NCBI GenBank assembly: GCA_025355385.1
Contig: JANXZS010000066.1
Span: 1 to 37,488 of the forward strand
DNA length: 37,488 bases
Source: Acidobacteriaceae bacterium
GTDB taxonomy: Bacteria; Acidobacteriota; Terriglobia; Terriglobales; Acidobacteriaceae
Direction of reading: 5' to 3'
Numbering within the stretch: the first letter of the stretch is position 1; each line of letters begins with the position of its first letter. This document shows, one piece after another, positions 8,701-36,880 of this stretch. The notes below the pieces were generated by a model. The model saw only the letters and a program-made list of their open reading frames with translations. It made no database searches and was not told the DNA's origin. The position numbers and the translations under genes are program-made.

Positions 8701-9145
8701 ACAGGTTCGCCCGAACGACCAGGTTGTTCAGCCGGCTAGAGGCGAGGGCGCCCCAGATTTCCGCCGATCCATGTTGCACATTGGTGCGCTTGACCAGGTG
8801 CCAGGTGAGACCACCTCCGGTGACACTGGTGACGATCGTGTTGGCGCCTGAGCGCCAATCGGTGGCGACGTACGCGAGAAGCAATTGACCGCCAGATCTC
8901 GTCGAGAAAGCAGGCGTACTGATCGTATTACTCGCCGACGTCGCATTCTTCGATACATGCGCGTCAATTGTTATTGAACCCCAGGCGCTCGAGCAGGCCA
9001 CCAATAGCGCCAAACTGATGAGTCTATGTCGGAGTCGCCAACCATCGGCAATCGCGATAACAAATTTAAGTCTTCGCGTCTGACCTGCGCGAAATTGTGA
9101 ATTGCCTATGTGGCTATTACAATTGCATTCCCGCTGACGGAACAT
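5702..9145 (-). CDS. Secreted GH16 glucanase with repeats and a duplicated unknown module
   Basis: The product has 1147 residues. An ATG at 9143-9145 is preceded by AAGGAG with six bases between, which decides the start. A signal-like segment is at about 37-56 (LISLALLVACSSAWG). Residues ~58-268 and ~515-730 are two copies of a ~210-residue module (shared SWVFGVGNDFD, GDTYWVQM and DRYN) that I cannot name. Three ~80-residue carboxypeptidase-like repeats lie between the copies and two more after the second. Residues ~905-1147 form a GH16 domain with EIDMVE (E1043, D1045, E1048), the retaining catalytic triad of laminarinase-type enzymes, which cut beta-1,3/1,4-glucans. Its place at the end of the EPS gene row suggests trimming or release of the polymer, or degradation of foreign glucan. 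The substrate is not determinable here. Confidence 0.88.
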   Translation of the reverse strand: MFRQRECNCNSHIGNSQFRAGQTRRLKFVIAIADGWRLRHRLISLALLVACSSAWGSITIDAHVSKNATSASNTISTPAFSTRSGGQLLLAYVATDWRSGANTIVTSVTGGGLTWHLVKRTNVQHGSAEIWGALASSRLNNLVVRANLSQDVFAAVTVMSYEGVDRTGAIGAVGSGNALSGTPSARLVTTRKDSWVFGVGNDFDHAIGRTPAPDQRLVNQYLAPVGDTYWVQMEHAPTPSRGTTVVIHDTAPSEDRYNMSLVEIRSAQTYRISGRVTPASLGAGTFLTLAQKGIKSSTARADVLGHFAFPDLSDGTYMVSPSKSGHVFTPLTQNVTVKGANATTNFSVAAAGYTISGTIAGRGGAGATVSLSGAATASTTANASGFYTFGGLQRNRYRITPRHTGYAFFPFSKDIVISGANSTGNFTTSPPRAWSISGTISPAASGVSVALSGTSSGASITDAAGNYFFSELVNGTYSLTPSQSGYTFTPASLAVPVNRANVVGENFTRQQAATGKIAIDATASGNSALAQATVSTPSFSTNASNELLLAFVTADSTSSPNTTVDSISGGGLGWTLVQRTNVQAGTSEIWRTFASTRLNNVTVTASLSQSLMSSITVISYMGVDLTTTDGSGAIGAVGTGNASSGAPTASVTTTRDNSWVFGVGNDFDNAIARTPAAGQSLTHEYLTVPGDTYWVQMRNAATVSAGTTVAINDTAPTGDRYNLSVVEILPALAAGKWSVAGNISPSASGSGATVNLSGAQSGTTQADASGNYTLANLVDGNYAVTPAKSGFSFAPVSAAVTISGANSTGVNFVATQLAASYSLSGAISPASASSGSTIKLSGPISASTTVNSVGTYIFSGVPAGSYTVTPANQNATFSPTSKTVTIGTSSVSGVDFTATTTANIIFYDDFTGTSLSSAWTVISRHGEYSQNETECNTPQQARVANGFLTITTTAQSANCGDFNIDGRVRNAPSSWPYTTGDVQWKNFNFTYGTVEIRAKFPAKGTGLWPALWLLGSNCQVTNPFTADTGYSTCPTLSSSSYAEIDMVECDLNNWCQLALSNPGNFPTCGLTVDSNFHVFSLKWTPTTVGVAVDGQDTGCGFTSGSMTIPSTPMFLIMQTQTGGAGGNPNDSLLPGQFVIDYVKVTQP

Positions 9146-9151
9146 GGACAA

Positions 9152-9157
9152 CTCCTT
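9152..9157 (-). promoter_or_regulatory. Ribosome binding site that sets the GH16 start
   Basis: AAGGAG on the minus strand, six bases before the ATG at 9145. It favours this internal start over the in-frame codon 37 residues upstream, which would place non-secretory sequence before the signal peptide. Confidence 0.7.
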
Positions 9158-9302
9158 GGGGTTGGAGATTCGATGTATACAAATCTCTGATACCTCCACT
9201 TCGTAGCTGCTTATTCCGTGATTACGGCGCGAGACAAATTGCTCAAGATCGTTCAAGCTCGGTATGCCAACGACAACTCCGATCTAGTGTAGTGGTCCAA
9301 TC

Positions 9303-9323: not shown

Positions 9324-9502
9324 TTATAGTCTTTCGCTTTATATTACGGCGAGTACATTTTTGAAGATTAGTCATGTAGTGCATGAGTTTGATGTGCACT
9401 TCTTTGCACACTCGAGCGCCAGCACTATCGCGCCATTTGTGGGCAAATGCTTTTATCCGATAGCGATTCGATCGAATGTAGTGGTGAAAGTACTGGTGGA
9501 AC

Positions 9503-18654: not shown

Positions 18655-19314
18655 CTAAGGGACGACGACAGTATCGCCGGGCTGTAAGGTATAGTTCTGC
18701 TCACTATCCCCACGTATCACCTTGGAGTAGTTGAAGAGTAGTTTCTGAGTGTGACCATTGGTGGCGCGCAGTACATAGATGTTCTTGCGATTCGCAAATG
18801 TGCTCAACCCTCCCGCCTGGGCAATCATCTGAAGCACATTGACCGGAGCAACTAGCGGGTATCCGCCGGGCTTCGCAACCTGTCCCATCACATACACCTG
18901 GCGGCTGCGAATATCCACCACACTGACTGTCACCTCAGGGTTCACCATATAAGAGTTCAGTTTGGACCTGAGGGCCAGGGCCACCTGATTAGCCGTCATG
19001 CCCACCACGTGAACATCTCCTAGCAAGGGCAGCGAGACGAACCCGTCCGGTCCAACCGTCACCGTTTGTGAGAGATCATTATTCTTCCAAACATTTACAC
19101 GAATGACATCGGAGACACCCAGGGTGTATCGCGACCCTCCGCTCAGGAATTTCAGATCGGTATCCGCCTGCACAAAGGTGCTGGCATGGGTAGCGTTTGC
19201 CAACCGCGCCGAAGTCGATGCAGTGCCCGCGACTTCCTGGGCACGATTGCTGCTAGCCAGCATGCCGAATAGGATCAGAATGGAGAGTAAGCGAATTGGA
19301 CGATAACAAACCAT
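18655..19314 (-). CDS. Short Wza-like polysaccharide export protein (OPX) lacking the C-terminal helix
   Basis: The protein has 219 residues. After a signal peptide (LLSILILFGMLASSNRAQ) come a polysaccharide-export domain (YTLGVSDVIRVNVWKN to EVTVSVVDI) and one SLBB domain (VYVMGQVAKPGGYPL to NIYVLRATNG). It ends at LQPGDTVVVP, right after the SLBB fold. Wza has a further C-terminal amphipathic helix that forms the outer-membrane pore; that part is absent here. There is no lipobox cysteine. It would therefore form a periplasmic ring needing another protein to cross the outer membrane, and the next gene encodes a beta-barrel. I use the ATG at 19312-19314; a TTG 51 bases upstream lacks support. 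A sigma-54-like element lies just upstream. Confidence 0.88.
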   Translation of the reverse strand: MVCYRPIRLLSILILFGMLASSNRAQEVAGTASTSARLANATHASTFVQADTDLKFLSGGSRYTLGVSDVIRVNVWKNNDLSQTVTVGPDGFVSLPLLGDVHVVGMTANQVALALRSKLNSYMVNPEVTVSVVDIRSRQVYVMGQVAKPGGYPLVAPVNVLQMIAQAGGLSTFANRKNIYVLRATNGHTQKLLFNYSKVIRGDSEQNYTLQPGDTVVVP

Positions 19315-19333
19315 TGTGTGCAGTCGACGATCC

Positions 19334-19394
19334 TCGTACAGTGAGATAGGCACATCGAGTGCCAAACTTCGTACAGCGTGATTGGCACAGCGAG
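19334..19394. repeat. Imperfect 26-bp direct repeat upstream of the OPX gene
   Basis: The 26-bp units at 19334-19359 and 19369-19394 share 22 positions, both beginning TCGTACAG and ending CGAG around a GGCACA core. Their starts are 35 bp apart. The repeat sits 20-80 bp upstream of the OPX start codon and overlaps the sigma-54-like element, so it may be a binding site. Confidence 0.5.
19350..19364 (-). promoter_or_regulatory. Candidate sigma-54 promoter of the OPX gene
   Basis: On the minus strand TGGCAC, five bases, then GTGC places GG and GC exactly ten bases apart, as required for sigma-54 -24/-12 elements (consensus TGGCAC-N5-TTGC). The implied transcription start is about 24 bases before the OPX ATG. 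GGCAC-N5-GTGCC is also a small palindrome, so an operator is an alternative. Confidence 0.5.
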
Positions 19395-19549
19395 AAGCGC
19401 TTATAGAGCGTTTTAAACGGCGGCTCTCAAAATAAACCTACGATGGAGATCTCAGACCTTCTAAGAAGAATTGCAATCCGTTGCAGAGTTTGCAAATCTT
19501 TGCGCGCTAGGGCTCCCATAGTAAGTTCAAGACCCTGACACCTTAAAAG

Positions 19550-21389: not shown

Positions 21390-22562
21390 CTAAGTCACGA
21401 CTTCGGCTCGAGCCCCTGCATTGCGGGCTCGGAATGGGAGAGGTACCCTGTCGGGCGTGAATGCTTCGGAGTAGACCGTGGCCATGGGAGCGAAGCGAAA
21501 CGTTTTCAAAAGATCGGCAAGCTTGATCCCCATCCCTGCCGTTCCCCACGTCTGACGAATGTTCGACAACCAGGGCAGGGCGAGATCCGGTTGACCTTGG
21601 TCAATTTCCCAGGGGTGCATGTATACCGTCCCAGGCTGACGTTCTTTCTCGTTCAAATGCCTGAGGCCCGCCACGCTGTAGCGGTATGGGAGAAGCCTCA
21701 AATACGCGCCGCCACCCACCGGAAGGTTCACTCCCAGCACGCGCCAGGTTGCCACCGGAATCTCCAGCAGGCGATTCTTGGCTACGTAATACGGATGCCG
21801 CGGGGCACTAGAATTCCCGTAAAAAGAGTGGCGAACGGGATTGACGCTCGAGTCATATTGAAAATCAAGTTCTGTCAAAACATCAAATGCCCACTCGATT
21901 CCGGGTGTGATCGAAAAGCATGGGGCCCGATAGCCTACAACCCGCGCTCCCGTTGCATCTTCAATGAGTTGTTTGGCCTTCAGCGTATCTTCGTAAAACG
22001 TCTTGCGGTCAAGCCTGAACACGGCACGGTGGAGATAGCTATGGCACCCAATTTCGTGTCCCCGCCTTGCCACTTCGCGCACCAGCGCTGGATATTTCTC
22101 AGCCACCCACCCCAGCACAAATACGGTCGCCCGCGTGTTGTGCTGATCGAGCAGATCAAGCAGGCGGGGAACACTTGAGTGAATCCGCGACGGCATGAGG
22201 TCCCATGATTGCAGACTGACTACCTGCGAGGCTACCTCGGTATGAAAATAGTCTTCCAGGTCAACACTGAACGCATTCGTGATCGTCGCAGTAGGATTTC
22301 TTGCTACGGCCGGAAGCGCGGGTCGCAATGGAAAGACGACGAGAGCCTTGACCGCCGGGGACTGCTCGGAACTTTTCTTTTCGTCCTTGCTCTTCATGAC
22401 AGCACTGATAAGCCAGCTAAACATGAGGCAAGTCGTTGCAGAGGACAAAAGACCTAAGCTTTCTGAGATTCCCGGAGTAAACAGGAGTCGCGCGTAGATT
22501 GCTGTCGCCACGCCACACGTGGCAGCCGCTACGCAGACCTCTTTACGACGACTAAGGCTCAT
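21390..22562 (-). CDS. XrtA-type polysaccharide deacetylase
   Basis: The protein has 390 residues. After one or two N-terminal membrane segments (to ~60) comes a NodB-type deacetylase domain: FSVDLEDYFH (metal Asp), HEIGCHSYLHR (metal His pair near 173-177), GYRAPCFSI and YDSSVNP. The C-terminal part (PVGGGAYLRLLPYRY, YMHPWEIDQGQPDL) matches the DUF3473-like extension of deacetylases in exosortase/PEP-CTERM EPS loci. It would remove N-acetyl groups from the polymer or its precursor in the periplasm. It is the first gene of the minus-strand row, and a candidate sigma-54 element lies 40 bp upstream. No exosortase gene is visible, although this subfamily is usually named for that association. 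Confidence 0.9.
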   Translation of the reverse strand: MSLSRRKEVCVAAATCGVATAIYARLLFTPGISESLGLLSSATTCLMFSWLISAVMKSKDEKKSSEQSPAVKALVVFPLRPALPAVARNPTATITNAFSVDLEDYFHTEVASQVVSLQSWDLMPSRIHSSVPRLLDLLDQHNTRATVFVLGWVAEKYPALVREVARRGHEIGCHSYLHRAVFRLDRKTFYEDTLKAKQLIEDATGARVVGYRAPCFSITPGIEWAFDVLTELDFQYDSSVNPVRHSFYGNSSAPRHPYYVAKNRLLEIPVATWRVLGVNLPVGGGAYLRLLPYRYSVAGLRHLNEKERQPGTVYMHPWEIDQGQPDLALPWLSNIRQTWGTAGMGIKLADLLKTFRFAPMATVYSEAFTPDRVPLPFRARNAGARAEVVT

Positions 22563-23332
22563 ACCCCTCCACCACCCCTGCTGCCATCCGCCCCCAAATA
22601 ATGCACGTGGGATTCCAAACAGGGGTGCATCATAAGGCTCTGTTTAAGAGGTTTTCGGAGAGAATTAGCATCTATTGCCGGAAGTACGGTGTGCAATAAG
22701 TTGCAGGGAATCACACAAGAACAGTACCTTGCACTGCCCATCTCACTCAGACAAAGTCCGGCAAATGTCCATTCTATTGTCGGGGACCGGACATGCCAGC
22801 GCAGTTGCCGTAGGCACTCCCCCTAGGAATCGAACTGAGGACAAATCGCCGATGCATCGCGAAATTCTCTCGCTCAGGCTGGACCGCCCTCGATTTCGAA
22901 AGAACAACGAAAACGTCGCACATCTGCAACTGAATGCGTAGGGTATCAGCGGTGAATTGAGTCACAAAACATAACAATCAAACAGTTGTAGTTACGGCCC
23001 TTTACGTGCTGCTCCTGAAGAATTAGGGGCTCTACTTATTCGTATCGCTGAGTTCCCGCACGGAAACTGCCACGCCATTGGGAATGTTTAGTTGAGGCCA
23101 TACGTTTCTCGCGGCCGCCGCAATCGTTTGGGCCAAATGTGGATGTGGCCGAGAACGTCTCGTCCGCAGCGGAAGGCAAGCTAAGCTTCATTACACTGTC
23201 AACGGTTCCCATGAAACGCCATTATGGGCTTCCGCACTCTTAAGTTTTAAGAGGATTAAGACCGGTACTTAATAGCGAATAGGACGCGAGCTCAGGGAAG
23301 TCTAGAGCGGCGCACCAAGGAAGTGAAGAGTC
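22563..23332. other. 770-bp divergent control region between the EPS row and the giant protein gene
   Basis: Besides the sigma-54-like element for the deacetylase, the region holds an inverted pair ATTGC...GCAAT at 22674-22698 and two nearby TTGCA words (22701 and 22729), about 70-125 bp upstream of that element, where an activator could bind. The other half, towards 23333, shows no convincing promoter. No gene is supported here. Confidence 0.4.
22603..22617 (-). promoter_or_regulatory. Candidate sigma-54 promoter of the deacetylase gene
   Basis: Minus-strand TGGAATCCCACGTGC (followed by A) has GG and GC exactly ten bases apart and GTGCA at the -12 position. The implied transcription start is about 30 bases before the ATG at 22562, a natural 5' leader length. 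Confidence 0.45.
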
Positions 23333-26300
23333 ATGTGCACCTCATTACACGTGAAGTCAATGCGCGTCGGCCTGTCGCTTGCAGGGCTAATTCTGCTCGC
23401 GATAGCAGCTTTTGCCGGGCGGTCCTACGCCCAATGCAGTAACCCTTCGAATGCCATTGTCGCCGAAAACTGCCTGCCCGGAAATCCTGACAGCGAGTGG
23501 GATGTCAGCACTTCGGATGCCGGCGACCCTACCCTTCAGGGCTTTGCCACTGACATCAGCGTAAACCAGGGCTCCACGGTCAATTTCAAAATCAAGACCG
23601 ATGCCCGCGCCTATGTGATCAACATCTATCGCATGGGGTATTACGGTGGCATGGGCGCTCGCAAAGTTGCGTCGATATCGCCTTCCGTTTCGCTGCCCCA
23701 GACTCAGCCCGCCTGTTTAGTTGTTGCAGCCACTGGCCTGATCGACTGCGGAAACTGGGCTGTGTCGGCCTCATGGCAGGTTCCTGCCAATGCAACCTCG
23801 GGGATTTACTTTGCCCATCTCATCAGGAGCGATACCAGTGGAGACAGCCACATCCTCTTCATCATAAGAAATGACTCCAGCCACTCGGCAGTGCTGTATC
23901 AAACGGCGGATGAATCGTGGCAAGCCTATAACTACTACGGTAACGGTAGCCTCTATGGTCCGGCGTCCCCTTCGTTCGACGTAAACGGCAGATCGTATAA
24001 GGTCAGCTACAACCGCCCCTTCTCAACTCGAAGCTTTGGTACAGAGAAGGATACCTGGGTCTTCGGACCGGAGTATCCAATGGTCCAGTGGCTTGAGGCG
24101 AACGGCTACGACGTGACCTACTTCACCGGCGTGGACGCCGCACGCAATGGTGCGTTGATCCAGAACCACAAGATATACATGGATTCGGGTCACGACGAGT
24201 ATTGGTCAGGTCCACAGCGCGCCAATGTCCAGGCGGCTCGCGACGCCGGTGTCAACCTCGCCTTCTTCAGCGGCAACGAAATATTTTGGAAGACGCGTTG
24301 GGAAAACAGCATCGATGGCAGCAACACACCCAACCGAACACTTGCCTGCTACAAAGAAACCTTTGCGTTCGCAAAGATCGACCCGACCCCAACCTGGACT
24401 GGTACATGGCGAGATCCAAGTTTCAGTCCGCCCTCGGATGGCGGCAAGCCAGAAAACAGTTTGACCGGAACCTTGTATATGGTCAACGGACCCGGAGCTG
24501 ATAATGATGGGACGTTTCCAATAAAAGTACCATCCGACGACGGCAAGATGAGATTCTGGCGCAATACAGCGGCGGCTTCTCTTGCGTCCAACGCTACGTA
24601 CACACTTCCCATTAGCACCCTTGCGTACGAGTGGGACCTCGATATCGACAACGGGGTCCGGCCCGCGGGTGCATTCCGGATGTCCACAACTACACACAAC
24701 CTCACCACCGATTTGTTGCTTGATTCCGGCGTGACGTACGGAGCCGGGACAGCCACTCACCATCTCATGATGTACCGCGCACCGAGCGGCGCGCTGGTCT
24801 TCGGTGCTGGAACGGTGAATTGGTCCTGGGGGCTTAACAGCAATCACGACAACCCGTTTGCCTCGGTCAATCAGGCACCTGATCCGAACATGCAGCAGGC
24901 CACCGTAAATCTATTTGCAGATATGGGTGCCCAACCAGCCTCATTGCAATCGGGCCTGATACCCGCGAGCGCATCCTCAGACACCACACCCCCGACCTCC
25001 GTCGTCACTGCTCCGGCATCCGGCTCAAGCGTCACTGCCGGGAGCTCCGTGACCGTGACGGGCACTGCCGGCGATGTAGGCGGAGTGGTAGCTGGAGTCG
25101 AGGTCTCGGCGGATAGCGGTGCGACATGGCACCCAGCTACGGGGCGATCCCCGTGGAGTTATGCCTGGACACCCAATTCAGTTGGGACAAGCACTATCCT
25201 AAGCCGGGCCGTGGACGACAGCGGGAACCTCGAAACGCCCCATAACGGAGTCTCAATCAGTGTGCTCCCGCGAAACTGTCCATGCAGTATTTGGAACTCT
25301 TCAAACGTTCCCACGACGATTGACAGTGGCGATGGCAGCTCAATCGAGGTTGGCGCTAAGTTTCGCACCGACACAAATGGCTCAATCCTCGGCGTTAGAT
25401 TCTACAAAGCCACGGCAAATACCGGAACCCACGTGGGGCATATCTGGACCAGCGGAGGAGCGCTGCTTGGAACTGCCACCTTTAGCAGTGAGAGCGCTTC
25501 AGGTTGGCAACAAGTGTCATTTCCCGCCCCGGTGTCAGTCAGTGCAAACACTACATACGTGGTTTCGTACTTCGCCCCGGCCGGACGCTACTCGGCTGAC
25601 ACAAGTTACTTTGCAAGTTCAGGGTTTGATAATCCTCCCCTGCATGCCTTGGCAAACGGAGTCGATGGTCAGAATGGAGTCTACCTTTACAGTTCTGCAG
25701 GCGGGTTTCCCAACTTTAGCTACGGATCGACTAATTACTGGGTAGATGTGGTCTATACCGCCTCCACGACCTTTGGTATCAGTGGGACCATTACTGGCAT
25801 CGGTGGCGCTGGCGCAACCGTAAACCTTGCCGGAACATCTGCAGCTAGCACCACTGCCGATTCATCCGGTATCTACAGTTTTTCCGGCTTGCTTAACGGG
25901 TCATATACTGTTGCTCCCAGCAACACCGGCGTCTCCTTCACGCCCACCAGCCGGGCGGTTACAATTAATGGAACTGCAGTCACCAGTGTCAACTTCACCG
26001 CAGCCGCGACCCAGGCCCTAAGTATTTCCGGAACAATAAGCAGTGGTGCTGGCGCGACCGTAAACCTTGGCGGAGCAGCCACGTTGACCACTACAGCGGA
26101 TGCATCGGGGAACTATGTATTCAATGGTCTTCTAAATGGGTCATATACCGTCACACCAGTTGCATCGGGTTACACCTTTAGCCCAGGTACACAGACTGTA
26201 ATTCTTTCCGGAACAAACGCAACCGGTGTAAATTTTCAAGGACAGGTTTGTGCATGCAGCTCAATATGGCAACCCTCAGCTACTCCTTCTCTAATCGACA

Positions 26301-28690
26301 GCGGAGACACCACGCCGGTTGAACTCGGCGTGAAGTTCAGGGCGGACTCACAAGGCTACATCACTGCCTTGAGGTTCTATAAGGCAACTGCAAATACGGG
26401 CACCCATGTTGGACACTTGTGGACCACTTCCGGAACTCTTCTTGGAAGCGCCACCTTCTCCGGCGAATCAGGACAGGGGTGGCAGCAAGTGACCTTCCCA
26501 AGTCCAATTCTCATTTCCGCCAACACCACATACGTGGCGTCGTATTTCGCGCCAGTCGCACACTATTCAGCAAACACAAATTTCTTTGCCACCATCGGAG
26601 TAGATAACCCACCCCTGCACGCATTGGCAACTGGCGTGGACGGGCCAAACGGACTATACATTTACACGTCTAACGGGGCTTTTCCCAACAATAGCTATGC
26701 GTCTACCAACTATTGGATAGACGTGGTCTATACCACATCTCAAACCCACAGCCTCAGCGGTACGATTACCGGAAGTGGCGGGGCAGGTGCCTCGCTGGCG
26801 CTAAGTGGTCCCACCACGGCCTCCACTACAGCAGATGGTGCCGGCAACTACATCTTTGGTGGTCTTCAGGACGGATCCTACACGGTAACAACCGTGACCG
26901 CTGGCAACGCCGGGACTATCTTCATGCCAGGTAGCCAGGGCGTAACGATCAATGGATCTAACGTTACGGGCGTCAACTTTGCGGTGCCACCAAACTGCCC
27001 GTGCAGCACCATCTGGCAGCCTTCGGTGCAACCTGCGCTCATCGACGCTAGCGACGTCAAGCCGGTCGAGCTGGGATTGAAGTTTCGCGCCGATTCAGAC
27101 GGGTACATCGTCGGGCTTCGTTATTACAAGTCGCCGAACAATACGGGGGCCCACGTTGGCAATCTTTGGTCCAGTACGGGCAAACTGCTGGCAACAGCGG
27201 CCGCCACGAGTGAAAGCGTCTCCGGGTGGCAGCAGATTGCTTTCTCGCGCCCTGTACCTGTTACCGCCAACACTACATACATCACGTCATATTTTGTTCC
27301 GGTGGGGCATTACTCCGCGAACTCGGGCTATTTCGCTACTGCGGGCGTTGATAGCCCTCCCTTGCACGCTCTGGCCAATGGGGTGGACGGCCAGAATGGA
27401 GTCTTTGCATATTCGTCGACTAGCACTTTTCCGACTAGCAGCTATAACTCCACTAACTATTGGGTCGACGTCATTTATGGCACGGCAACGTCTTACAGCA
27501 TCGCCGGAACAATCAGTGGAAACGGCGGTGCCGGTGCTACTGTAACCCTTAGTGGAGCGGCCGCTGCGACGACGACGGCCGATGCAACCGGTAAATATAG
27601 CTTCAATGGCCTCGCCAATGGAACTTACACGATCACGCCAGGTAATACCGGCTACACATTTAGCCCACTCAGCCGAAGCGTGACGATCAACGGAGCCCAT
27701 GCGCTCGGGATAGACTTCAGTATCCCGACGACCACCTATAGCATCTCCGGAATGGTCACCGGCGCGACAGGAGCATCGGTCAATCTCACTGGCACGGCCA
27801 CGGCCACAACTACTGTCGACGCCTCAGGGAACTATAGCTATACCGGCCTGGCGAGTGGGTCCTACACGGTGTCTCCTAGCGCTGCCGGCTACCTCCTTAG
27901 CCCTACAAATCAAATCGTAACGATCACCGCAGCTAACATCGCCGGCGTAAACTTCACCGCTACCGCACAGACTTATACGATCTCTGGAACCATCAGCGGG
28001 ACTGGTGGACCGGGGGCAACCATCACATTAACCGGAGCCGCCACTACGACAGCGACCGCGGATGCTTCCGGTATCTACAGCTTCTCCGGACTGATAAACG
28101 GATCTTATACGGTCACTCCCACCAAGTCGGGCTACTCCTTCACTCCTGCCAGCCAAACAGTGACAGTAAGCAATGCCAGTATCGCAGCAAACTTCACCTC
28201 GACAGCATTCACCTACCTCCTCTCCGGAACCATCAGCGGCCCTGGCGGACCGGGAGCCACGGTGAAATTGACCGGGGCGGCAGCAGCGACAGTGACCGCG
28301 AACGCTTCAGGGGTTTACTCCTTCCCCGCCGTCACCAACGGATCCTACACGGTCAAACCCACTAAGACGGGTTACATCTTCACTCCAACTAGCCGCTCAG
28401 TGACAGTAAGCGGAGCGAATGTCACCGCAAACTTCTCCTCGGTCCTGAAGACCTACTCCATCTCCGGAACCATCAGCGGCCCCGGCGGACCGGGAGCAAG
28501 CGTCGCATTGACGGGAGCCGCGACGACTACAATCACCGCAAATTCGTCTGGAGTTTTCAACTTTAGTGGACTCGCAAATGGCTCTTACACGGTTACGCCC
28601 AGCAAGACGGGTAACACCTTCACTCCAACTAGCCAGGCAGTAACAGTCAACCTCAGCAATGTGACAGGAGTAAATTTCGGGTCACTCTAA
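23333..28690 (+). CDS. Giant secreted protein: dimethylformamidase-like domain, Ig-like domain, three DUF4082 modules, eight repeats
   Basis: The product has 1785 residues with a signal peptide (LSLAGLILLAIAAFAGRSYAQ). Residues ~60-545 resemble the large-subunit C-terminal domain of N,N-dimethylformamidase (YRMGYYGGMGARKV, DESWQAYNYYG, MDSGHDEYWSG, FFSGNEIFWKTRWE). An Ig-like domain is at ~551-643. DUF4082-type modules start near 649, 973 and 1222 (each with FYKA/YYKS, GWQQ and NPPLHALA or SPPLHALA). Between and after them are eight ~80-residue repeats (SGTI...G-x-GATV, DASG-x-Y, NGSYTV-P). It ends without a PEP-CTERM or other sorting signal. The frame is divergent from the EPS row and its repeats resemble those of the GH16 protein. 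An extracellular role in glycan binding or modification is inferred; no catalytic residues can be named. Confidence 0.85.
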   Translation: MCTSLHVKSMRVGLSLAGLILLAIAAFAGRSYAQCSNPSNAIVAENCLPGNPDSEWDVSTSDAGDPTLQGFATDISVNQGSTVNFKIKTDARAYVINIYRMGYYGGMGARKVASISPSVSLPQTQPACLVVAATGLIDCGNWAVSASWQVPANATSGIYFAHLIRSDTSGDSHILFIIRNDSSHSAVLYQTADESWQAYNYYGNGSLYGPASPSFDVNGRSYKVSYNRPFSTRSFGTEKDTWVFGPEYPMVQWLEANGYDVTYFTGVDAARNGALIQNHKIYMDSGHDEYWSGPQRANVQAARDAGVNLAFFSGNEIFWKTRWENSIDGSNTPNRTLACYKETFAFAKIDPTPTWTGTWRDPSFSPPSDGGKPENSLTGTLYMVNGPGADNDGTFPIKVPSDDGKMRFWRNTAAASLASNATYTLPISTLAYEWDLDIDNGVRPAGAFRMSTTTHNLTTDLLLDSGVTYGAGTATHHLMMYRAPSGALVFGAGTVNWSWGLNSNHDNPFASVNQAPDPNMQQATVNLFADMGAQPASLQSGLIPASASSDTTPPTSVVTAPASGSSVTAGSSVTVTGTAGDVGGVVAGVEVSADSGATWHPATGRSPWSYAWTPNSVGTSTILSRAVDDSGNLETPHNGVSISVLPRNCPCSIWNSSNVPTTIDSGDGSSIEVGAKFRTDTNGSILGVRFYKATANTGTHVGHIWTSGGALLGTATFSSESASGWQQVSFPAPVSVSANTTYVVSYFAPAGRYSADTSYFASSGFDNPPLHALANGVDGQNGVYLYSSAGGFPNFSYGSTNYWVDVVYTASTTFGISGTITGIGGAGATVNLAGTSAASTTADSSGIYSFSGLLNGSYTVAPSNTGVSFTPTSRAVTINGTAVTSVNFTAAATQALSISGTISSGAGATVNLGGAATLTTTADASGNYVFNGLLNGSYTVTPVASGYTFSPGTQTVILSGTNATGVNFQGQVCACSSIWQPSATPSLIDSGDTTPVELGVKFRADSQGYITALRFYKATANTGTHVGHLWTTSGTLLGSATFSGESGQGWQQVTFPSPILISANTTYVASYFAPVAHYSANTNFFATIGVDNPPLHALATGVDGPNGLYIYTSNGAFPNNSYASTNYWIDVVYTTSQTHSLSGTITGSGGAGASLALSGPTTASTTADGAGNYIFGGLQDGSYTVTTVTAGNAGTIFMPGSQGVTINGSNVTGVNFAVPPNCPCSTIWQPSVQPALIDASDVKPVELGLKFRADSDGYIVGLRYYKSPNNTGAHVGNLWSSTGKLLATAAATSESVSGWQQIAFSRPVPVTANTTYITSYFVPVGHYSANSGYFATAGVDSPPLHALANGVDGQNGVFAYSSTSTFPTSSYNSTNYWVDVIYGTATSYSIAGTISGNGGAGATVTLSGAAAATTTADATGKYSFNGLANGTYTITPGNTGYTFSPLSRSVTINGAHALGIDFSIPTTTYSISGMVTGATGASVNLTGTATATTTVDASGNYSYTGLASGSYTVSPSAAGYLLSPTNQIVTITAANIAGVNFTATAQTYTISGTISGTGGPGATITLTGAATTTATADASGIYSFSGLINGSYTVTPTKSGYSFTPASQTVTVSNASIAANFTSTAFTYLLSGTISGPGGPGATVKLTGAAAATVTANASGVYSFPAVTNGSYTVKPTKTGYIFTPTSRSVTVSGANVTANFSSVLKTYSISGTISGPGGPGASVALTGAATTTITANSSGVFNFSGLANGSYTVTPSKTGNTFTPTSQAVTVNLSNVTGVNFGSL
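27974..28687 (+). repeat. Tandem 240-bp coding repeats at the end of the giant gene
   Basis: The last three repeat units start at Tyr codons 27974, 28214 and 28454, exactly 240 bp (80 codons) apart, and share long near-identical DNA such as TCTCCGGAACCATCAGCGG (seen at 28221 and 28461). The units before them (from 27494 and 27737) have periods of 81 and 79 codons and more sequence drift. This indicates recent duplication at the 3' end. Confidence 0.8.
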
Positions 28691-30803: not shown

Positions 30804-32192
30804 TCAGCAGCGAACTATCTTTGGCGAGTTGATGCCCTTCGTGGCATTGCGGGTATCCACTACGATCTGCGACGTCTCCACGATCTCCTGGTAATCGTAG
30901 TCGGAGTGATCCGTCACAATCAGCACGCAGTCATACTGCCCAAGATTTTCCAGTGACGTGCAGGTCATGTTGAGGTTGTAGTGGCGTCCCTTGCCTACTT
31001 TCGGAAAGTAGGGGTCGTTGTACAGCACTTCGGCGCCCTCCTGGCGAAGGAGCTCGATAATCGTAAGCGAAGGAGATTCGCGCAGGTCGTCGATGTCCTT
31101 TTTGTACGCCATGCCCAGCATCAGTATCCGCGAGCCATTCAGCGCTTTCTTATTCTGGTTGAGCGCCCTGCCAACGGATTGCACAACGTGCGCCGGCATC
31201 GATTCATTCACTTCCCCAGCCAACTCGATAAAGCGCGTACTGAAGTCATACTCCTTCGCCTTCCAACTGAGATAGAAGGGGTCAATAGGAATGCAGTGCC
31301 CGCCCAGTCCGGGCCCCGGATAAAAAGGATGAAATCCGAAGGGCTTGGTCGCAGCCGCGTCGATGACCTCCCATATATCCACTCCCATGCGTAGCGACAG
31401 CAGCTTGAGTTCATTCACCAGCGCGATATTCACGCAGCGATAGATGTTCTCAAGCAACTTGGTCATCTCAGCCACACGGGTTGACGATACCGGGACGGCA
31501 CGCGTAAAAATGCCTTCATACATCGCCGCCGCCAGCTTGGTAGCCACCTCTTCATGACCGCCGACTACCTTGGGGATGTCGCGGCGGGCTACAGTGTCGT
31601 TCCCCGGGTCTTCCCGCTCTGGAGAAAAGGCCACATAGAAGACACCATGCTCAGCCGGCAAACCCTTGCTCTGAACCTTCAGCCCCAGCACGTTTCTGGA
31701 TTCGAGAATCGGGATCAGCAGGTCCTCCGTAGTGCCCGGATAGGTCGTGCTCTCGAGGACAACCAACTGACCTTCCTGTATCCAGGGCGCCGCCGACTTT
31801 GCCGTGTTTTCAATGAAGCTTAGGTCCGGTTCGCGGTGGTCCGTCAGCGGCGTGGGAACGCACATGATTATGGCGTCCTGATCGGAGAGGCGGGAGAAGT
31901 CGTTAGTGGCCCGGAAGCCATGTTCCCGGGCACCCTGAATATCAGTGTTCGGAATGCGGAAGATATAGGACCGGCCATCTTCAAGATCGATCACCTTTTT
32001 TGTGTCGATGTCGAAGCCCGTAACCCTGAAGCCCGCCTCGGACAACAACAACGAAAGCGGCAACCCGACGTAGCCCAGGCCGATAACTCCAATCTTAGCG
32101 GTGCGGCTTTCGAAGCGATCCAGGCGTTCCTGGGCGATTTGAGGCAGGAGAAAACTACTCGTAGTGAACATCGGTGTTTGATCAAACTCCAT
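30804..32192 (-). CDS. UDP-N-acetylglucosamine 6-dehydrogenase (WbpA-like)
   Basis: The 462-residue nucleotide-sugar dehydrogenase has an NAD-binding Rossmann motif IGVIGLGYVGLPL (about 34-46), the substrate-site stretch LVVLESTTYPGTT, the family signature FSPEREDPGN, and the catalytic cysteine C300 in GLGGHCIPIDPFYL. A C-terminal UDP-binding domain (LMLGMAYKKDIDDLRESP) follows. These motifs resemble WbpA-type enzymes, which oxidise UDP-GlcNAc twice to UDP-GlcNAcA, more than UDP-glucose dehydrogenases. It would supply an acidic sugar to the polysaccharide. The first ~30 residues are extra relative to relatives. Upstream lies a cluster of five TATGCAA/TTGCATA words, probably regulatory, between this gene and the sigma-54 activator gene on the same strand. 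Confidence 0.88.
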   Translation of the reverse strand: MEFDQTPMFTTSSFLLPQIAQERLDRFESRTAKIGVIGLGYVGLPLSLLLSEAGFRVTGFDIDTKKVIDLEDGRSYIFRIPNTDIQGAREHGFRATNDFSRLSDQDAIIMCVPTPLTDHREPDLSFIENTAKSAAPWIQEGQLVVLESTTYPGTTEDLLIPILESRNVLGLKVQSKGLPAEHGVFYVAFSPEREDPGNDTVARRDIPKVVGGHEEVATKLAAAMYEGIFTRAVPVSSTRVAEMTKLLENIYRCVNIALVNELKLLSLRMGVDIWEVIDAAATKPFGFHPFYPGPGLGGHCIPIDPFYLSWKAKEYDFSTRFIELAGEVNESMPAHVVQSVGRALNQNKKALNGSRILMLGMAYKKDIDDLRESPSLTIIELLRQEGAEVLYNDPYFPKVGKGRHYNLNMTCTSLENLGQYDCVLIVTDHSDYDYQEIVETSQIVVDTRNATKGINSPKIVRC

Positions 32193-32230: not shown

Positions 32231-32362
32231 TTGCATATTCAAACCGGAATAGTTGGGAGAGAATCGCCCGAGCAAATGCCCTTAAAGTTTTTTTGGCCCG
32301 TATCGGCTATGCAAAACGTTGCATAACTTTTCCATTCCCTATGCAATTCTGGATTTATGCAA
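32231..32362. promoter_or_regulatory. Five TATGCAA/TTGCATA sites upstream of the dehydrogenase gene
   Basis: Copies lie at 32231-32237, 32308-32314, 32319-32325, 32340-32346 and 32356-32362. The second and third form the palindrome TATGCAA-AACG-TTGCATA. By chance this 7-mer would be expected about 0.02 times in 130 bp. Four copies lie 115-170 bp upstream of the dehydrogenase ATG, the usual place of enhancer sites for sigma-54 activators, one of which is encoded directly upstream. Confidence 0.6.
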
Positions 32363-32382: not shown

Positions 32383-33423
32383 TCATCCCAGCATCTCATC
32401 CGGTCCCGGATAGGGGACCTTCGGTATCGGAGCTTTAGTACTGCGTACAGGCGGCAAACCAGCTTCCTTGATCTTGTACAGCAGCGAGCGATAGCTGATG
32501 TCCAGCGAGCGAGCGGTTTTTCGGCGGTTCCACTTATGAGCCTGCAGCACACCGAGAATAATCTTCTTCTCCAGGTGCTGCACAGCGCGTTTCGTCTGTA
32601 CCCTCAAGGGAGTATCCAGGTCGACGGCATCAGCCCCCAACGGACGCACTTCTGAGGGATCGCGAAGCACCGAAATAATCTGACTCTCATCCCCGAGCAC
32701 GACGTAGCGCTTAGCCAGATTCTCCAACTCGCGTATGTTCCCAGGCCAGTGGTACGACTCGAGCATGCTCAAGAATGAGGCACTGAGAGGCACAGGGCGT
32801 CCGCCGAAGCGCTCGCTGTAAACGCGGATGAAGTGGTTCATGAGGATGGGTACATCGCAGGTGCGCTCTCGTAGCGAGGGCATCTCGATTCTCAGCACAT
32901 TGATCCGGTAGAACAGATCTGTGCGAAAACCACCTTTCGCCACTTCAGCCTCGAGATCCCTGTTGGTTGCGCAGATCAGCCGCACGTCAACCGAACGTTC
33001 ATCCACTGAACCCAGTCGAACCACCTTGAAATCCTGCACGGCATGCAAAAGTTTTGACTGCAGCGTTAAATCCAGTTCCCCTATTTCGTCCAGAAAGAGC
33101 GTGCCCTGATCGGCTTGCTCAAATTTTCCCGCCTTCGCCTCTTTCGCCCCGGTAAACGCACCGACGTCATGACCGAAGAGTTCACTTTCAAAGAGCTGAT
33201 TGGGGATCGCCGGACAATTCACTTTCAGGAAGTTGTGCGCATGGCGGGCGCTCAAGGCGTGCAACAACCTGGCAGCCAGCTCTTTGCCTGTACCGCTCTC
33301 GCCAGTGATGAGAACTGGCACCTCGGTCAGTGCGGCCTTTTGGATTTGCTCGCTGACTCGATGGATCACCGGCGAGTCTCCTAAAAGAGCTTCAGCCGGT
33401 CGATACCCTTGACTCTCCCGCAT
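32383..33423 (-). CDS. Sigma-54-dependent transcriptional activator without receiver domain
   Basis: The 346-residue protein starts almost directly with the AAA+ domain: Walker A GESGTGKE (41-48), GAFTGA loop (88-93), Walker B GTLFLDEIGEL, arginine-finger region FRTDLFYRINVL, and WPGNIRELENL. A Fis-type helix-turn-helix follows (NRRKTARSLDISYRSLLYKI) and then a proline-rich tail. The GAFTGA loop is intact, so it should contact sigma-54. It has no N-terminal sensor, so its activity is probably set by amount or by partners. I use the ATG at 33421-33423, preceded by GAGGG with seven bases between; the frame extends to a TTG at 33501. Its neighbours are nucleotide-sugar genes, so EPS control is likely. 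Confidence 0.9.
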   Translation of the reverse strand: MRESQGYRPAEALLGDSPVIHRVSEQIQKAALTEVPVLITGESGTGKELAARLLHALSARHAHNFLKVNCPAIPNQLFESELFGHDVGAFTGAKEAKAGKFEQADQGTLFLDEIGELDLTLQSKLLHAVQDFKVVRLGSVDERSVDVRLICATNRDLEAEVAKGGFRTDLFYRINVLRIEMPSLRERTCDVPILMNHFIRVYSERFGGRPVPLSASFLSMLESYHWPGNIRELENLAKRYVVLGDESQIISVLRDPSEVRPLGADAVDLDTPLRVQTKRAVQHLEKKIILGVLQAHKWNRRKTARSLDISYRSLLYKIKEAGLPPVRSTKAPIPKVPYPGPDEMLG

Positions 33424-33819
33424 GCACACGCCCTCAACGTTATAGGCGGATGCACGTAAAGGACCAAAGCGGGGAGTAGTGCAGTCCCCCACACAATCCA
33501 AAGCTCGATTGCGAGATGGGACCTACCCAAATCCATTTTCGAGATTTATATTTTGGATGCCATGAGCCATCCTGAGCCTGATCTTTTACCAAATCGTACC
33601 GAGCGTGATAAGTTGAAAGGGCCTTTGTAACCCAAGATTCGCCCCGGGAGCAGCACACTAAGAATCATCAGGCTGTGCGTGGCACTGCTGCGTACCAATG
33701 GATCAGACTGCGCCCGGGCCTGGCCTCTTTGATGGGCCCCGCGCGAGGCTATAAACCGGAATTTTTTCGCTACACATTTCTTCACCGCGCAATGCCAGAG
33801 GCTCATGGATGGAGGGTAA
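33424..33819. other. Divergent spacer between activator and epimerase genes
   Basis: The spacer is 396 bp. The activator's ribosome site (GAGGG) is at its left end and that of the epimerase (GGAGGG) at its right end. No convincing promoter is visible. A GG-N10-GC match near 33700 has a poor context and is not called. Confidence 0.4.
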
Positions 33820-35084: not shown

Positions 35085-35091
35085 TATGCAA
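35085..35091 (+). promoter_or_regulatory. TATGCAA word upstream of the second activator
   Basis: The extended form TATGCAAAAG is identical to the copy at 32356. It lies 32 bp upstream of the -35 box of the promoter at 35123. It may be a binding site of the same regulator; alone it could be chance. Confidence 0.35.
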
Positions 35092-35151: not shown

Positions 35152-35464
35152 CGCGTTGCTTCAGCAGATCTCGGTGGGTCCTAGAGCTCGAACTGAACCA
35201 AGACAGGTAACACTTCCAGATCGTTACGACGGAAGGCAAACGAAACGAATCGGGCTCTGTGAGCACTATTTTTTGCTATTGCCGACAGGCTCTAGCGTGT
35301 GGGACTTGCTGCAACGATTCTCCCGGCTTCCTGCAAAAGTATCGATGTCGCAGTAAGCCATCCGTGGGGTTAGAGAGTGAGTGCCAGATTGGCGACAATC
35401 AGCACCCTACAGTTTCCCATCCCATCCTCGCCCACTCTTGTCTCTATTCTTTCGAGGTGCATCA

Positions 35465-36880
35465 ATGACGCATGCAGTGCAAATTCTAGCCATCAGCGAC
35501 GACACTAAAGTCTGCGAACTGATCCACTCTTCTCTGGAGTCAGAGGGCTATCAAGCGATGTGTGTTCCCTCACCGCAGGAGGCTTTGCAGCTTTTGCATA
35601 AAGGGGTTGTGACCGATTGTCTTCTATTCGACGCTGCAAAAAACAAGCCACGAGATGGCCTTTTCTCCCCCGCGCTTCTTGAGACGGTCAGCAGTGATAA
35701 GCTCTGCATCCTGTCGGAGATGGGAGATACGTCCTGGAGGAACCACGCTGCGAAATGGAGCATTAATACTGTGCTGACCAAGCCCTTGCTGCGCCACGAT
35801 CTCGAAAAATTGACTTCCCGCCCGAAGAGCGTCTTTGCCCCGGCGGTTCCCGTCGCCGCAACCAGTCCGAAGGTTCCCGATTTCCATTTGGAAGAGCTGG
35901 ACAACAATCGTTTTTTTCTGGCGGCAACGCCGACGATGATGCAGATCTACAAGGACATCCGAATCCTGGCTCCCGTCGATATTCCTGTCCTCATCCTGGG
36001 CGAGAGCGGCGTTGGCAAAGAAATCGTGGCCATGCTGCTGCACAAATACCACGCGCGTTCTGAAAAGAAATTTCTCAACGTCAACTGCGCGGCCCTGCCC
36101 ACCGAGCTCCTGGAGAGCGAGCTTTTCGGCTATGAAGCTGGCGCTTTTACTGGCGCGATCAAGGCCAAGCCGGGTAAATTCGAACTGGCGAACAAGGGAA
36201 CACTGCTGCTGGACGAAATTGGCGAGATGAGCCCCCAGATGCAGGCCAAACTGCTCCACGTCCTGCAGGATGGCTCCTTCGCACGCCTGGGAGCACGGAC
36301 GACAACACAAGTGGATGTCCGCGTTCTGGCAGCAACCAATATCAATATTCAGGATGCAATTGCAGAGAAGCGCTTCCGCGAAGACCTCTATTACCGTTTG
36401 AATGCCTTCACTATTACGATTCCTCCGCTCCGGGAACGCCGTCAGGAGATTCCCCTCCTCATGGATCAGCTGATTCAAAGGGGAGCCGCCGAGCTCGGAC
36501 GACGGCCATTCGCTTTCTCCGGACAAATTATGGAGGCAGCGATGGAATACCACTGGCCGGGAAACCTTCGCGAGCTGCGCAACTTTGTCACTCGCACGCT
36601 CATCCTGCAAGATCAGGAATCCGCATACAAAGACCTCAGGGCCAAGACACGAACTGTTTCCACCGCTTCCCCGGTAGTCTCAATGGACCCAGTGGTCGAG
36701 ACCAGGACGATGGCCGGAATGAAAGGTGTAGTAAACGGCGTCAAGAATCAGACCGAAATTCGCATGATTCAGGACGCCCTATCAGCATCGGGCTGGAATC
36801 GCAGAAGGGCCGCTACAAACCTGAACATAAGCTACCGTGCGCTGCTGTATAAAATTCAGCAGCACGGGCTGACCGCATAG
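35465..36880 (+). CDS. NtrC-type sigma-54 response regulator (PrsR-like)
   Basis: The protein has 471 residues. The receiver domain (1-115) keeps the acidic pair D12-D13, the phosphoacceptor position D56 in CLLFDAAKN, S84 in the switch position and K106 in VLTKPLL. The AAA+ domain follows with Walker A GESGVGKE, an intact GAFTGA loop, LLLDEIGEM, FREDLYYRLNAF and WPGNLRELRNF. The C-terminal Fis-type helix-turn-helix (NRRRAATNLNISYRALLYKI) is nearly the same as in the receiver-less activator, so the two may share DNA sites. This architecture is that of the response regulator of exosortase-type EPS loci. A GAGGTG ribosome site decides the start at 35465. No histidine kinase gene is in the window. 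Confidence 0.9.
   Translation: MTHAVQILAISDDTKVCELIHSSLESEGYQAMCVPSPQEALQLLHKGVVTDCLLFDAAKNKPRDGLFSPALLETVSSDKLCILSEMGDTSWRNHAAKWSINTVLTKPLLRHDLEKLTSRPKSVFAPAVPVAATSPKVPDFHLEELDNNRFFLAATPTMMQIYKDIRILAPVDIPVLILGESGVGKEIVAMLLHKYHARSEKKFLNVNCAALPTELLESELFGYEAGAFTGAIKAKPGKFELANKGTLLLDEIGEMSPQMQAKLLHVLQDGSFARLGARTTTQVDVRVLAATNINIQDAIAEKRFREDLYYRLNAFTITIPPLRERRQEIPLLMDQLIQRGAAELGRRPFAFSGQIMEAAMEYHWPGNLRELRNFVTRTLILQDQESAYKDLRAKTRTVSTASPVVSMDPVVETRTMAGMKGVVNGVKNQTEIRMIQDALSASGWNRRRAATNLNISYRALLYKIQQHGLTA

What the first reader, a model, noticed from the sequence alone, without database searches (positions are those of the whole stretch)
32231..32362. Five-copy TATGCAA/TTGCATA cluster with a palindrome: candidate activator enhancer
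Five copies of one 7-mer in 132 bp are far above chance, and two form an 18-bp palindrome with a 4-bp centre. The cluster lies between a sigma-54 activator and the dehydrogenase gene, at enhancer distance. The word recurs upstream of the second activator (35085), whose DNA-reading helix is nearly the same.
Basis: partly seen in the sequence, partly recalled or inferred. Interest (0 to 1): 0.6.

Follow-up and report, generated by a model that had tools for sequence, protein, structure and literature searches.

The report
Sigma-54 enhancer box for slime genes
A repeated DNA word next to slime-polymer genes of a soil Acidobacteriaceae bacterium turns out to be one copy of a mirror-image switch site that recurs across the family, often in front of sigma-54 promoters, although the promoter it should switch on at this particular spot could not be found.

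Summary
Observation right: TATGCAA occurs five times in 32231-32362, between a sigma-54 activator gene (act1) and a nucleotide-sugar dehydrogenase gene; two copies form TATGCAAAACGTTGCATA. The unit that matters is the palindrome. Its core TGCAA-N4-TTGCA occurs 9 times in the 4.63-Mb genome, 3 of them in this window in gaps beside EPS genes; 19472 and 22692 lie 115 and 82 bp from sigma-54 promoter matches. TRTGCAA-N4-TTGCAYA is in 83 of 300 family genomes (reversed control 3), but in 12 of 309 others of the phylum (control 7). Of 70 fetched copies, 38 have a sigma-54 match within 250 bp against 22 of 269 control points; only the canonical GG-N10-GC spacing is enriched. Copies are over-represented in EPS loci and near act1, and conserved between act1 and the export gene in four of its seven nearest relatives. 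So the box is very probably the enhancer of an act1/act2-type activator. Known kind; I found no description of this box.

The parts
32308..32325 (.). 18-bp palindrome TATGCAA-AACG-TTGCATA, core of the cluster; operator of the TGCAA-N4-TTGCA class
32231..32237 (-). half-site TATGCAA
32340..32346 (+). half-site TATGCAA
32356..32362 (+). half-site TATGCAA
32383..33501 (-). act1: NtrC-family sigma-54 activator without a receiver domain match (AAA+ with GAFTGA, Fis-type HTH)
30804..32192 (-). nucleotide-sugar dehydrogenase (TIGR03026) downstream of the cluster
35381..36880 (+). act2: NtrC-family activator with a receiver-like N-terminus (likely start ATG 35465, read); HTH nearly the same as act1
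35085..35091 (+). lone half-site upstream of act2, no palindromic partner
19472..19485 (.). exact palindrome TGCAATCCGTTGCA upstream of the export gene
19491..19504 (.). second palindrome (1 mismatch), 19 bp from the first; the copy that aligns with the orthologous loci
19349..19364 (-). sigma-54 promoter match TGGCACTCGATGTGCC, 115 bp from palindrome 19472
18655..19365 (-). polysaccharide export protein (Poly_export, SLBB), likely start ATG 19314
   Evidence: start read
22692..22705 (.). exact palindrome TGCAATAAGTTGCA upstream of the deacetylase gene
22602..22617 (-). sigma-54 promoter match TGGAATCCCACGTGCA, 82 bp from palindrome 22692
21390..22562 (-). XrtA-system polysaccharide deacetylase (TIGR03006)
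9395..9408 (.). weaker palindrome (1 mismatch) in the gap upstream of 5702-9256; no sigma-54 match (best 5.6 bits)

Best explanation
The cluster is an operator (upstream activating sequence) of an NtrC-family sigma-54 activator of the act1/act2 type that runs an exopolysaccharide/cell-surface regulon in Acidobacteriaceae. An activator dimer reads the palindrome TRTGCAA-N4-TTGCAYA; the extra half-sites would help further dimers assemble; the AAA+ ring is then looped to sigma-54 RNA polymerase at a -24/-12 promoter, mostly 60-180 bp away. At the export gene and the deacetylase gene of this window box and promoter are both visible. At the dehydrogenase the box is the most complete in the genome but its promoter was not found, so control of that gene is inferred. 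Shown by computation: the box, its recurrence in the family, its coupling to sigma-54 promoters and to EPS loci. Inferred: that act1 and/or act2 is the protein that binds, and that the dehydrogenase is a target.
For: Core TGCAA-N4-TTGCA: 9 in the genome, 3 in this 0.8% of it, in gaps by EPS genes (P 4e-5, or 0.002 leaving out the site that led here). TRTGCAA-N4-TTGCAYA in 83 of 300 family genomes vs 3 of 300 for the reversed pattern. Sigma-54 match of at least 10 bits within 250 bp: 38 of 70 boxes vs 22 of 269 control points, at least 12 bits 25 vs 5; spacings N7-N9 and N11-N13 are at control level. Extra TGCAA half-sites within 160 bp: 1.03 per box vs 0.53 per control point. In 18 XrtA-deacetylase loci, chosen without regard to the box, 7 exact cores in 322 kb vs 0.42 expected. 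In four of the seven nearest act1 relatives the box lies between divergent act1 and the export gene, and aligned with the window GCAA-N4-TTGC is invariant. Genomes with an act1 relative carry the box more often: 65 of 156 vs 18 of 144. Boxes within 30 kb of act1: 7 of 66 vs 0.9 expected. Exact cores also lie upstream of act1 relatives themselves (L022/L051, L038, L039).
Against: No sigma-54 match around the dehydrogenase box (best 2.6 bits in the gap; 1.7 and -0.8 outward from the box); three GG-N9-GC strings exist there but N9 is not enriched at boxes. 32 of 70 boxes have no sigma-54 match of 10 bits. Of the seven nearest act1 relatives three (G188, G327, G225) have no box between act1 and the export gene; one of them has only a 1-mismatch core about 500 bp before act1. 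18 of 83 box-bearing genomes lack an act1 relative at the cut used, and 91 of 156 with one lack the strict box. 8 of 14 genomes with fetched XrtA-deacetylase loci have no exact core there. No palindrome within 2 mismatches upstream of act1 or act2 in the window. The co-occurrence test is not corrected for phylogeny. RpoN in this genome was not searched for.
Confidence: 0.66

Rival explanations
1. The box is the same activator's site, but at the dehydrogenase it does not drive a sigma-54 promoter: it is a relic of a rearranged promoter, or it works by blocking or modulating another promoter type, or it only holds activator.
For: No sigma-54 match on either strand within 250 bp; relatives with a dehydrogenase gene lack the box upstream of it (0 of 5); in the four aligned orthologous loci act1 borders the export gene, not the dehydrogenase, so the neighbourhood here is arranged differently.
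Against: Five intact copies and a palindrome with perfect 7-bp arms are not what decay leaves; 32 of 70 boxes elsewhere also lack a match to my simple matrix, so absence may be the matrix's fault; no sigma-70 promoter match was found either.
Confidence: 0.25
2. The palindrome is the operator of an unrelated regulator (for example a repressor) that happens to sit near surface genes.
For: No binding data; not every box has a sigma-54 promoter match; 18 box-bearing genomes lack an act1 relative at the cut used.
Against: Enrichment of sigma-54 promoters with exactly the N10 spacing, the association with act1.
Confidence: 0.06
3. Chance clustering of a 7-mer.
For: 2 instances of some 7-mer with five copies in 132 bp in 60 simulated windows; a second, coding, example exists in the window.
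Against:: the palindrome recurs, conserved, near promoters.
Confidence: 0.03

Closest known systems
PEP-CTERM box of Proteobacteria (motif 1 + sigma-54 motif 2, predicted PrsR site; Haft et al. 2006, PMC1569441, passages read)
   Same: A predicted activator site upstream of a -24/-12 promoter, in front of EPS-associated genes, matched by phylogenetic profile to an NtrC-type activator.
   Different: Motif 1 there was found through TTTACA, its spacer averages 62.8 nt, and only Proteobacteria share it; here TGCAA-N4-TTGCA, 30 of 38 distances between 60 and 180 bp, one acidobacterial family. act1 and act2 score far below the PrsR cut-off; no PEP-CTERM protein was found in this genome. The paper says that further regulators and DNA motifs remain to be discovered.
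NtrC enhancer site TGCACCAnnnTGGTGCA (PMC8743547, one passage read)
   Same: Dyad with TGCA at the outer end of each arm and a short centre; site of an NtrC-family activator.
   Different: Arms TGCAA/TTGCA with N4 instead of TGCACCA/TGGTGCA with N3; act1 is below the cut-off of the NtrC models and has no receiver match.
LuxO site TTGCAWWWTGCAA of Vibrionaceae (PMC10162802, passages read)
   Same: The same five-letter half-site, used by an NtrC-family activator; the paper raises overlapping sites of two activators.
   Different: Arms point the other way (TTGCA-N3-TGCAA there, TGCAA-N4-TTGCA here).
Solved activators ZraR (1ojl) and NifA (9qq6)
   Same: Best-scoring solved relatives of act1, over AAA+ and HTH.
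   Different: Different operators (recalled, from no call); the similarity is that of the superfamily.

Membership tests
sigma-54 upstream activating sequence (enhancer box) | conserved dyad operator in intergenic DNA | tested here: met
   83 of 300 family genomes vs 3 control; 50 of 70 outside predicted ORFs; invariant in five aligned gaps, absent from the act1 side in 3 of 7 nearest relatives
sigma-54 upstream activating sequence (enhancer box) | -24/-12 promoter with GG-N10-GC within looping distance, class as a whole | tested here: met
   38 of 70 vs 22 of 269; six other spacings not enriched
sigma-54 upstream activating sequence (enhancer box) | -24/-12 promoter for the dehydrogenase box itself | tested here: not met
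   best 2.6 bits in the gap, 1.7 outward from the box
sigma-54 upstream activating sequence (enhancer box) | bound by an enhancer-binding protein | not testable with these tools
   needs gel shift or footprint
act1/act2 as sigma-54 enhancer-binding proteins | Sigma54_activat AAA+ domain, GAFTGA loop, Fis-type HTH | tested here: met
act1/act2 as sigma-54 enhancer-binding proteins | RpoN encoded in the same genome | not tested
   no search made
PrsR / PEP-CTERM box regulon | PrsR model TIGR02915 over its cut-off | tested here: not met
   285.6 and 288.3 bits, cut-off 502.6
PrsR / PEP-CTERM box regulon | PEP-CTERM proteins in the genome | tested here: not met
   TIGR02595: 0 matches at E<=1; a 24-position model, so weak members could be missed
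XrtA-type EPS locus | TIGR03006 deacetylase and TIGR03013 glycosyltransferase over cut-off | tested here: met
   303.5 vs 276.2 and 403.7 vs 393.35 bits
NtrC site | TGCACC arms | tested here: not met
   arms are TGCAA/TTGCA
LuxO site | TTGCA-N3-TGCAA order | tested here: not met
   order reversed, N4

The most novel reading that the evidence does not exclude
TRTGCAA-N4-TTGCAYA is the acidobacterial counterpart of the PEP-CTERM box: the common enhancer of a family-wide sigma-54 surface regulon (EPS export and assembly, exosortase, PEP-CTERM proteins, other surface proteins), read by two paired activators with one and the same DNA-reading helix, one without and one with a receiver domain, which compete or mix on the same boxes; in the window's genome the dehydrogenase cluster is its highest-affinity node.
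Probability: 0.3. Interest if true: 0.62.

Novelty: new member of a known kind. Interest (0 to 1): 0.47.

Why it matters
Acidobacteria are abundant in soil and make exopolysaccharides (general knowledge; also the listing), yet in the listings I saw no paper that describes a sigma-54 activator site in them. The box gives a sequence handle to predict which genes form this surface regulon across a family, and offers, outside the Proteobacteria, one of the further motifs that the PEP-CTERM paper expected. It is a gel shift away from being tested.

Tried and rejected
Rejected: the 7-mer as the unit (it is the palindrome that recurs); 35085 as a second target (half-site only); the three GG-N9-GC strings near the cluster as sigma-54 promoters (N9 not enriched at boxes); a sigma-70 promoter or terminator in the gap (none found); PrsR membership; PEP-CTERM genes as targets in this genome (none found).

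Led nowhere: 29 act1 loci of relatives (L018-L046) hold at most one TATGCAA each, no cluster; dehydrogenase upstream regions of five relatives hold no box within 2 mismatches, so conservation of this very cluster could not be tested at an orthologous place; paper searches on acidobacterial sigma-54 regulation listed nothing on topic. The shared recognition helix is weaker evidence than it looks: ISYR(A/S)LLYK is in 20 of 20 act1 relatives, and ISYKALLYK in 13 of the 14 act2 relatives read in full (18 tried), so it marks the pair as a lineage, not this locus. In this genome, of 17 other PF00158 matches the HTH could be read for six: five differ, L197 partly resembles it.

Limits: the sigma-54 matrix is a recalled consensus with weights I set by hand; control points lie 800-1100 bp away in the same loci and are mostly not promoter gaps; gene calls around boxes are simple ORFs; 70 of 119 boxes were fetched, in listing order, not by content; family tallies used 79 of 88 flanking ORFs (9 short or overlapping ones dropped), 66 of 84 typed boxes could be used; the enrichment used 15 of the 18 XrtA loci because three genomes (G005, G016, G112, none with a box there) had not been counted whole; one search adds them at the same density. 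The reversed control differs in dinucleotides, so the spacing control is the cleaner one. In one search the up/down labels are right for plus-strand loci only; only L022/L051 (reoriented) and L038, L039 were used.

Full report
What is there. The window is contig C74 of a 4.63-Mb draft genome in 321 contigs. Three genomes of its family have contigs of the same length as named records (G097 as Acidobacteriaceae bacterium ZG23-2, G303 as an Acidobacteriales bin, G247 as Silvibacterium sp.), so I infer Acidobacteriaceae. The window carries an XrtA-type exopolysaccharide locus (deacetylase TIGR03006 and glycosyltransferase TIGR03013 over their cut-offs; export protein, GNVR/Wzz-like protein, glycosyltransferase) and two NtrC-family activators, act1 (32383-33501, minus, no receiver match) and act2 (35381-36880, plus, receiver match below the Pfam cut-off), 42% identical over 319 aligned positions, both with GAFTGA. 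The reported cluster lies in the 190-bp gap between act1 and a nucleotide-sugar dehydrogenase gene, both on the minus strand.

Is it more than chance. All five copies and the palindrome are at the stated places. For a word named beforehand the cluster would be extremely unlikely, but for any 7-mer there were 2 instances in 60 simulated windows. TATGCAA-N0-30-TTGCATA occurs nowhere else in the genome.

From word to box. A gapped search of the genome showed that the N4 palindrome recurs within this very window. The core TGCAA-N4-TTGCA occurs exactly 9 times in the genome; three are here, at 19472, 22692 and 32310, each in a gap beside EPS genes. That is P 4e-5, or 0.002 if the site that led me here is left out. 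A second palindrome with one mismatch begins 19 bp from 19472. A sigma-54 -24/-12 match lies 115 bp from 19472 in front of the export gene and 82 bp from 22692 in front of the deacetylase gene. With one mismatch the core is common (158 in the genome, reversed control 82), so weak copies such as 9395 mean little by themselves.

The family. In 300 genomes of the family TRTGCAA-N4-TTGCAYA is present in 83 (119 places), its reversed control in 3. In 347 genomes of the phylum, 12 of the 309 outside the family have it, control 7, so outside the family it is near chance. I fetched 70 of the 119 family copies. 50 of 70 lie outside predicted ORFs. With a hand-set matrix, 38 of 70 have a sigma-54 match of at least 10 bits within 250 bp, against 22 of 269 control points in the same loci; at 12 bits 25 against 5. 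Repeating this with the two promoter blocks moved closer or apart by one to three bases removes the signal: 4-8 of 70 against 20-28 of 269. Only the true sigma-54 spacing is enriched, which composition cannot explain. This is the strongest single result. 30 of the 38 distances are 60-180 bp (range 33-200).

What it sits next to. In 15 XrtA-deacetylase loci of 11 relatives, chosen without regard to the box, there are 7 exact cores in 262 kb where 0.34 are expected from the rest of those genomes; 5 of these 11 genomes had none. Three more loci (G005, G016, G112) had none either; with them 7 in 322 kb against 0.42. Among 79 ORFs flanking the 70 boxes the family with most members is the PEP-CTERM motif (6, Pfam); glycosyltransferase 2, condensation domains, XrtA-system ATPase and a copper-radical oxidase have three each, exosortase two. 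Roughly 60 of the 79 match none of these, and no background tally was made. One flanking ORF (L122) reads like a type IV pilin (by eye).

Which protein. Seven act1 relatives are 68-74% identical. In four (G303, G097, G179, G247) the box lies between divergent act1 and the export gene, one of the four with a mismatch; aligned with the window's export-gene gap, GCAA-N4-TTGC is invariant in all five (the aligned window copy is 19491). In the other three (G188, G327, G225) there is no box within one mismatch between act1 and the export gene; G188 has one 1-mismatch core about 500 bp before act1, and G327 has one upstream of its deacetylase gene with a 16-bit sigma-54 match. Exact cores also precede act1 relatives in L022/L051, L038 and L039. 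Of 300 genomes, 65 of 156 with an act1 relative (E at most 1e-88) carry the strict box and 18 of 144 without (odds ratio 5, P 1.6e-8 without correction for phylogeny). Of 66 usable boxes 7 lie within 30 kb of act1, 0.9 expected. act1 and act2 share the helix ISYR(A/S)LLYKI; of six other activators of this genome whose HTH I could read, five differ and L197 partly resembles it. So act1 or act2, or both, is the likely reader; I could not tell them apart.

What does not fit. The dehydrogenase box, the only one in the genome with both 7-bp arms perfect, has no sigma-54 match: best 2.6 bits in the gap, 1.7 and -0.8 within 250 bp outward. There is no sigma-70 match, and no counterpart upstream of five other dehydrogenase relatives. 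The three GG-N9-GC strings there are tempting, one of them 54 bp from the start codon like the promoters of the other two genes (50 and 55 bp), but N9 is not enriched at boxes. The 35085 copy is a half-site. act1 and act2 have no palindrome within two mismatches upstream in this window. The 9395 palindrome has no sigma-54 match.

Compared with what is known. It works like the site-plus-promoter unit that Haft et al. predicted for PrsR in Proteobacteria (passages) but is not a member: other motif, other activator, no PEP-CTERM protein found in this genome. A floc-former paper reports an RpoN-dependent PEP-CTERM gene with the predicted enhancer upstream (passages). For D. vulgaris, DVUA0057 has mapped PEP-CTERM targets, and a figure legend there says no site motifs were validated for the regulators shown (passages). 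The half-site is that of LuxO, in opposite order (passages), and the outer TGCA is that of NtrC (passage). A search for the literal string TGCAANNNNTTGCA found no paper in the held library, which is a weak test because a motif may be written otherwise.

Verdict.

Noticed in passing
window 2985-3096: AAGCGCT also occurs five times within 132 bp, but inside a TPR/lytic transglycosylase coding region; ordinary coding repetition or chance.
   Followed up: partly
G000 C284:14788 and 14857 (L009, L010): Two identical copies of TGCAATTGATTGCA 69 bp apart, on another contig, beside a short ORF; possible further target.
   Followed up: no
window 19472-19504: Two palindromes 19 bp apart (about two helical turns) in front of the export gene, fitting two activator dimers on one face.
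   Followed up: partly
window 23333-28690: 1785-residue surface-type protein with DUF4082, a dimethylformamidase-like domain and many carboxypeptidase-regulatory-like repeats; its relative in L189 has a box (1 mismatch) and a 12-bit sigma-54 match upstream.
   Followed up: partly
L130, L134 (relatives): A box lies between what reads as a nucleotide-sugar dehydrogenase gene and an exosortase gene in two relatives (by eye; PF09721 in two of 79 ORFs).
   Followed up: partly
whole genome G000: XrtA-type EPS genes are present but no PEP-CTERM protein was detected; whether an exosortase exists was not tested.
   Followed up: no
L047-L066: act1 and act2 relatives form a divergent pair 0.6-2.4 kb apart in 18 of 20 loci.
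   Followed up: partly
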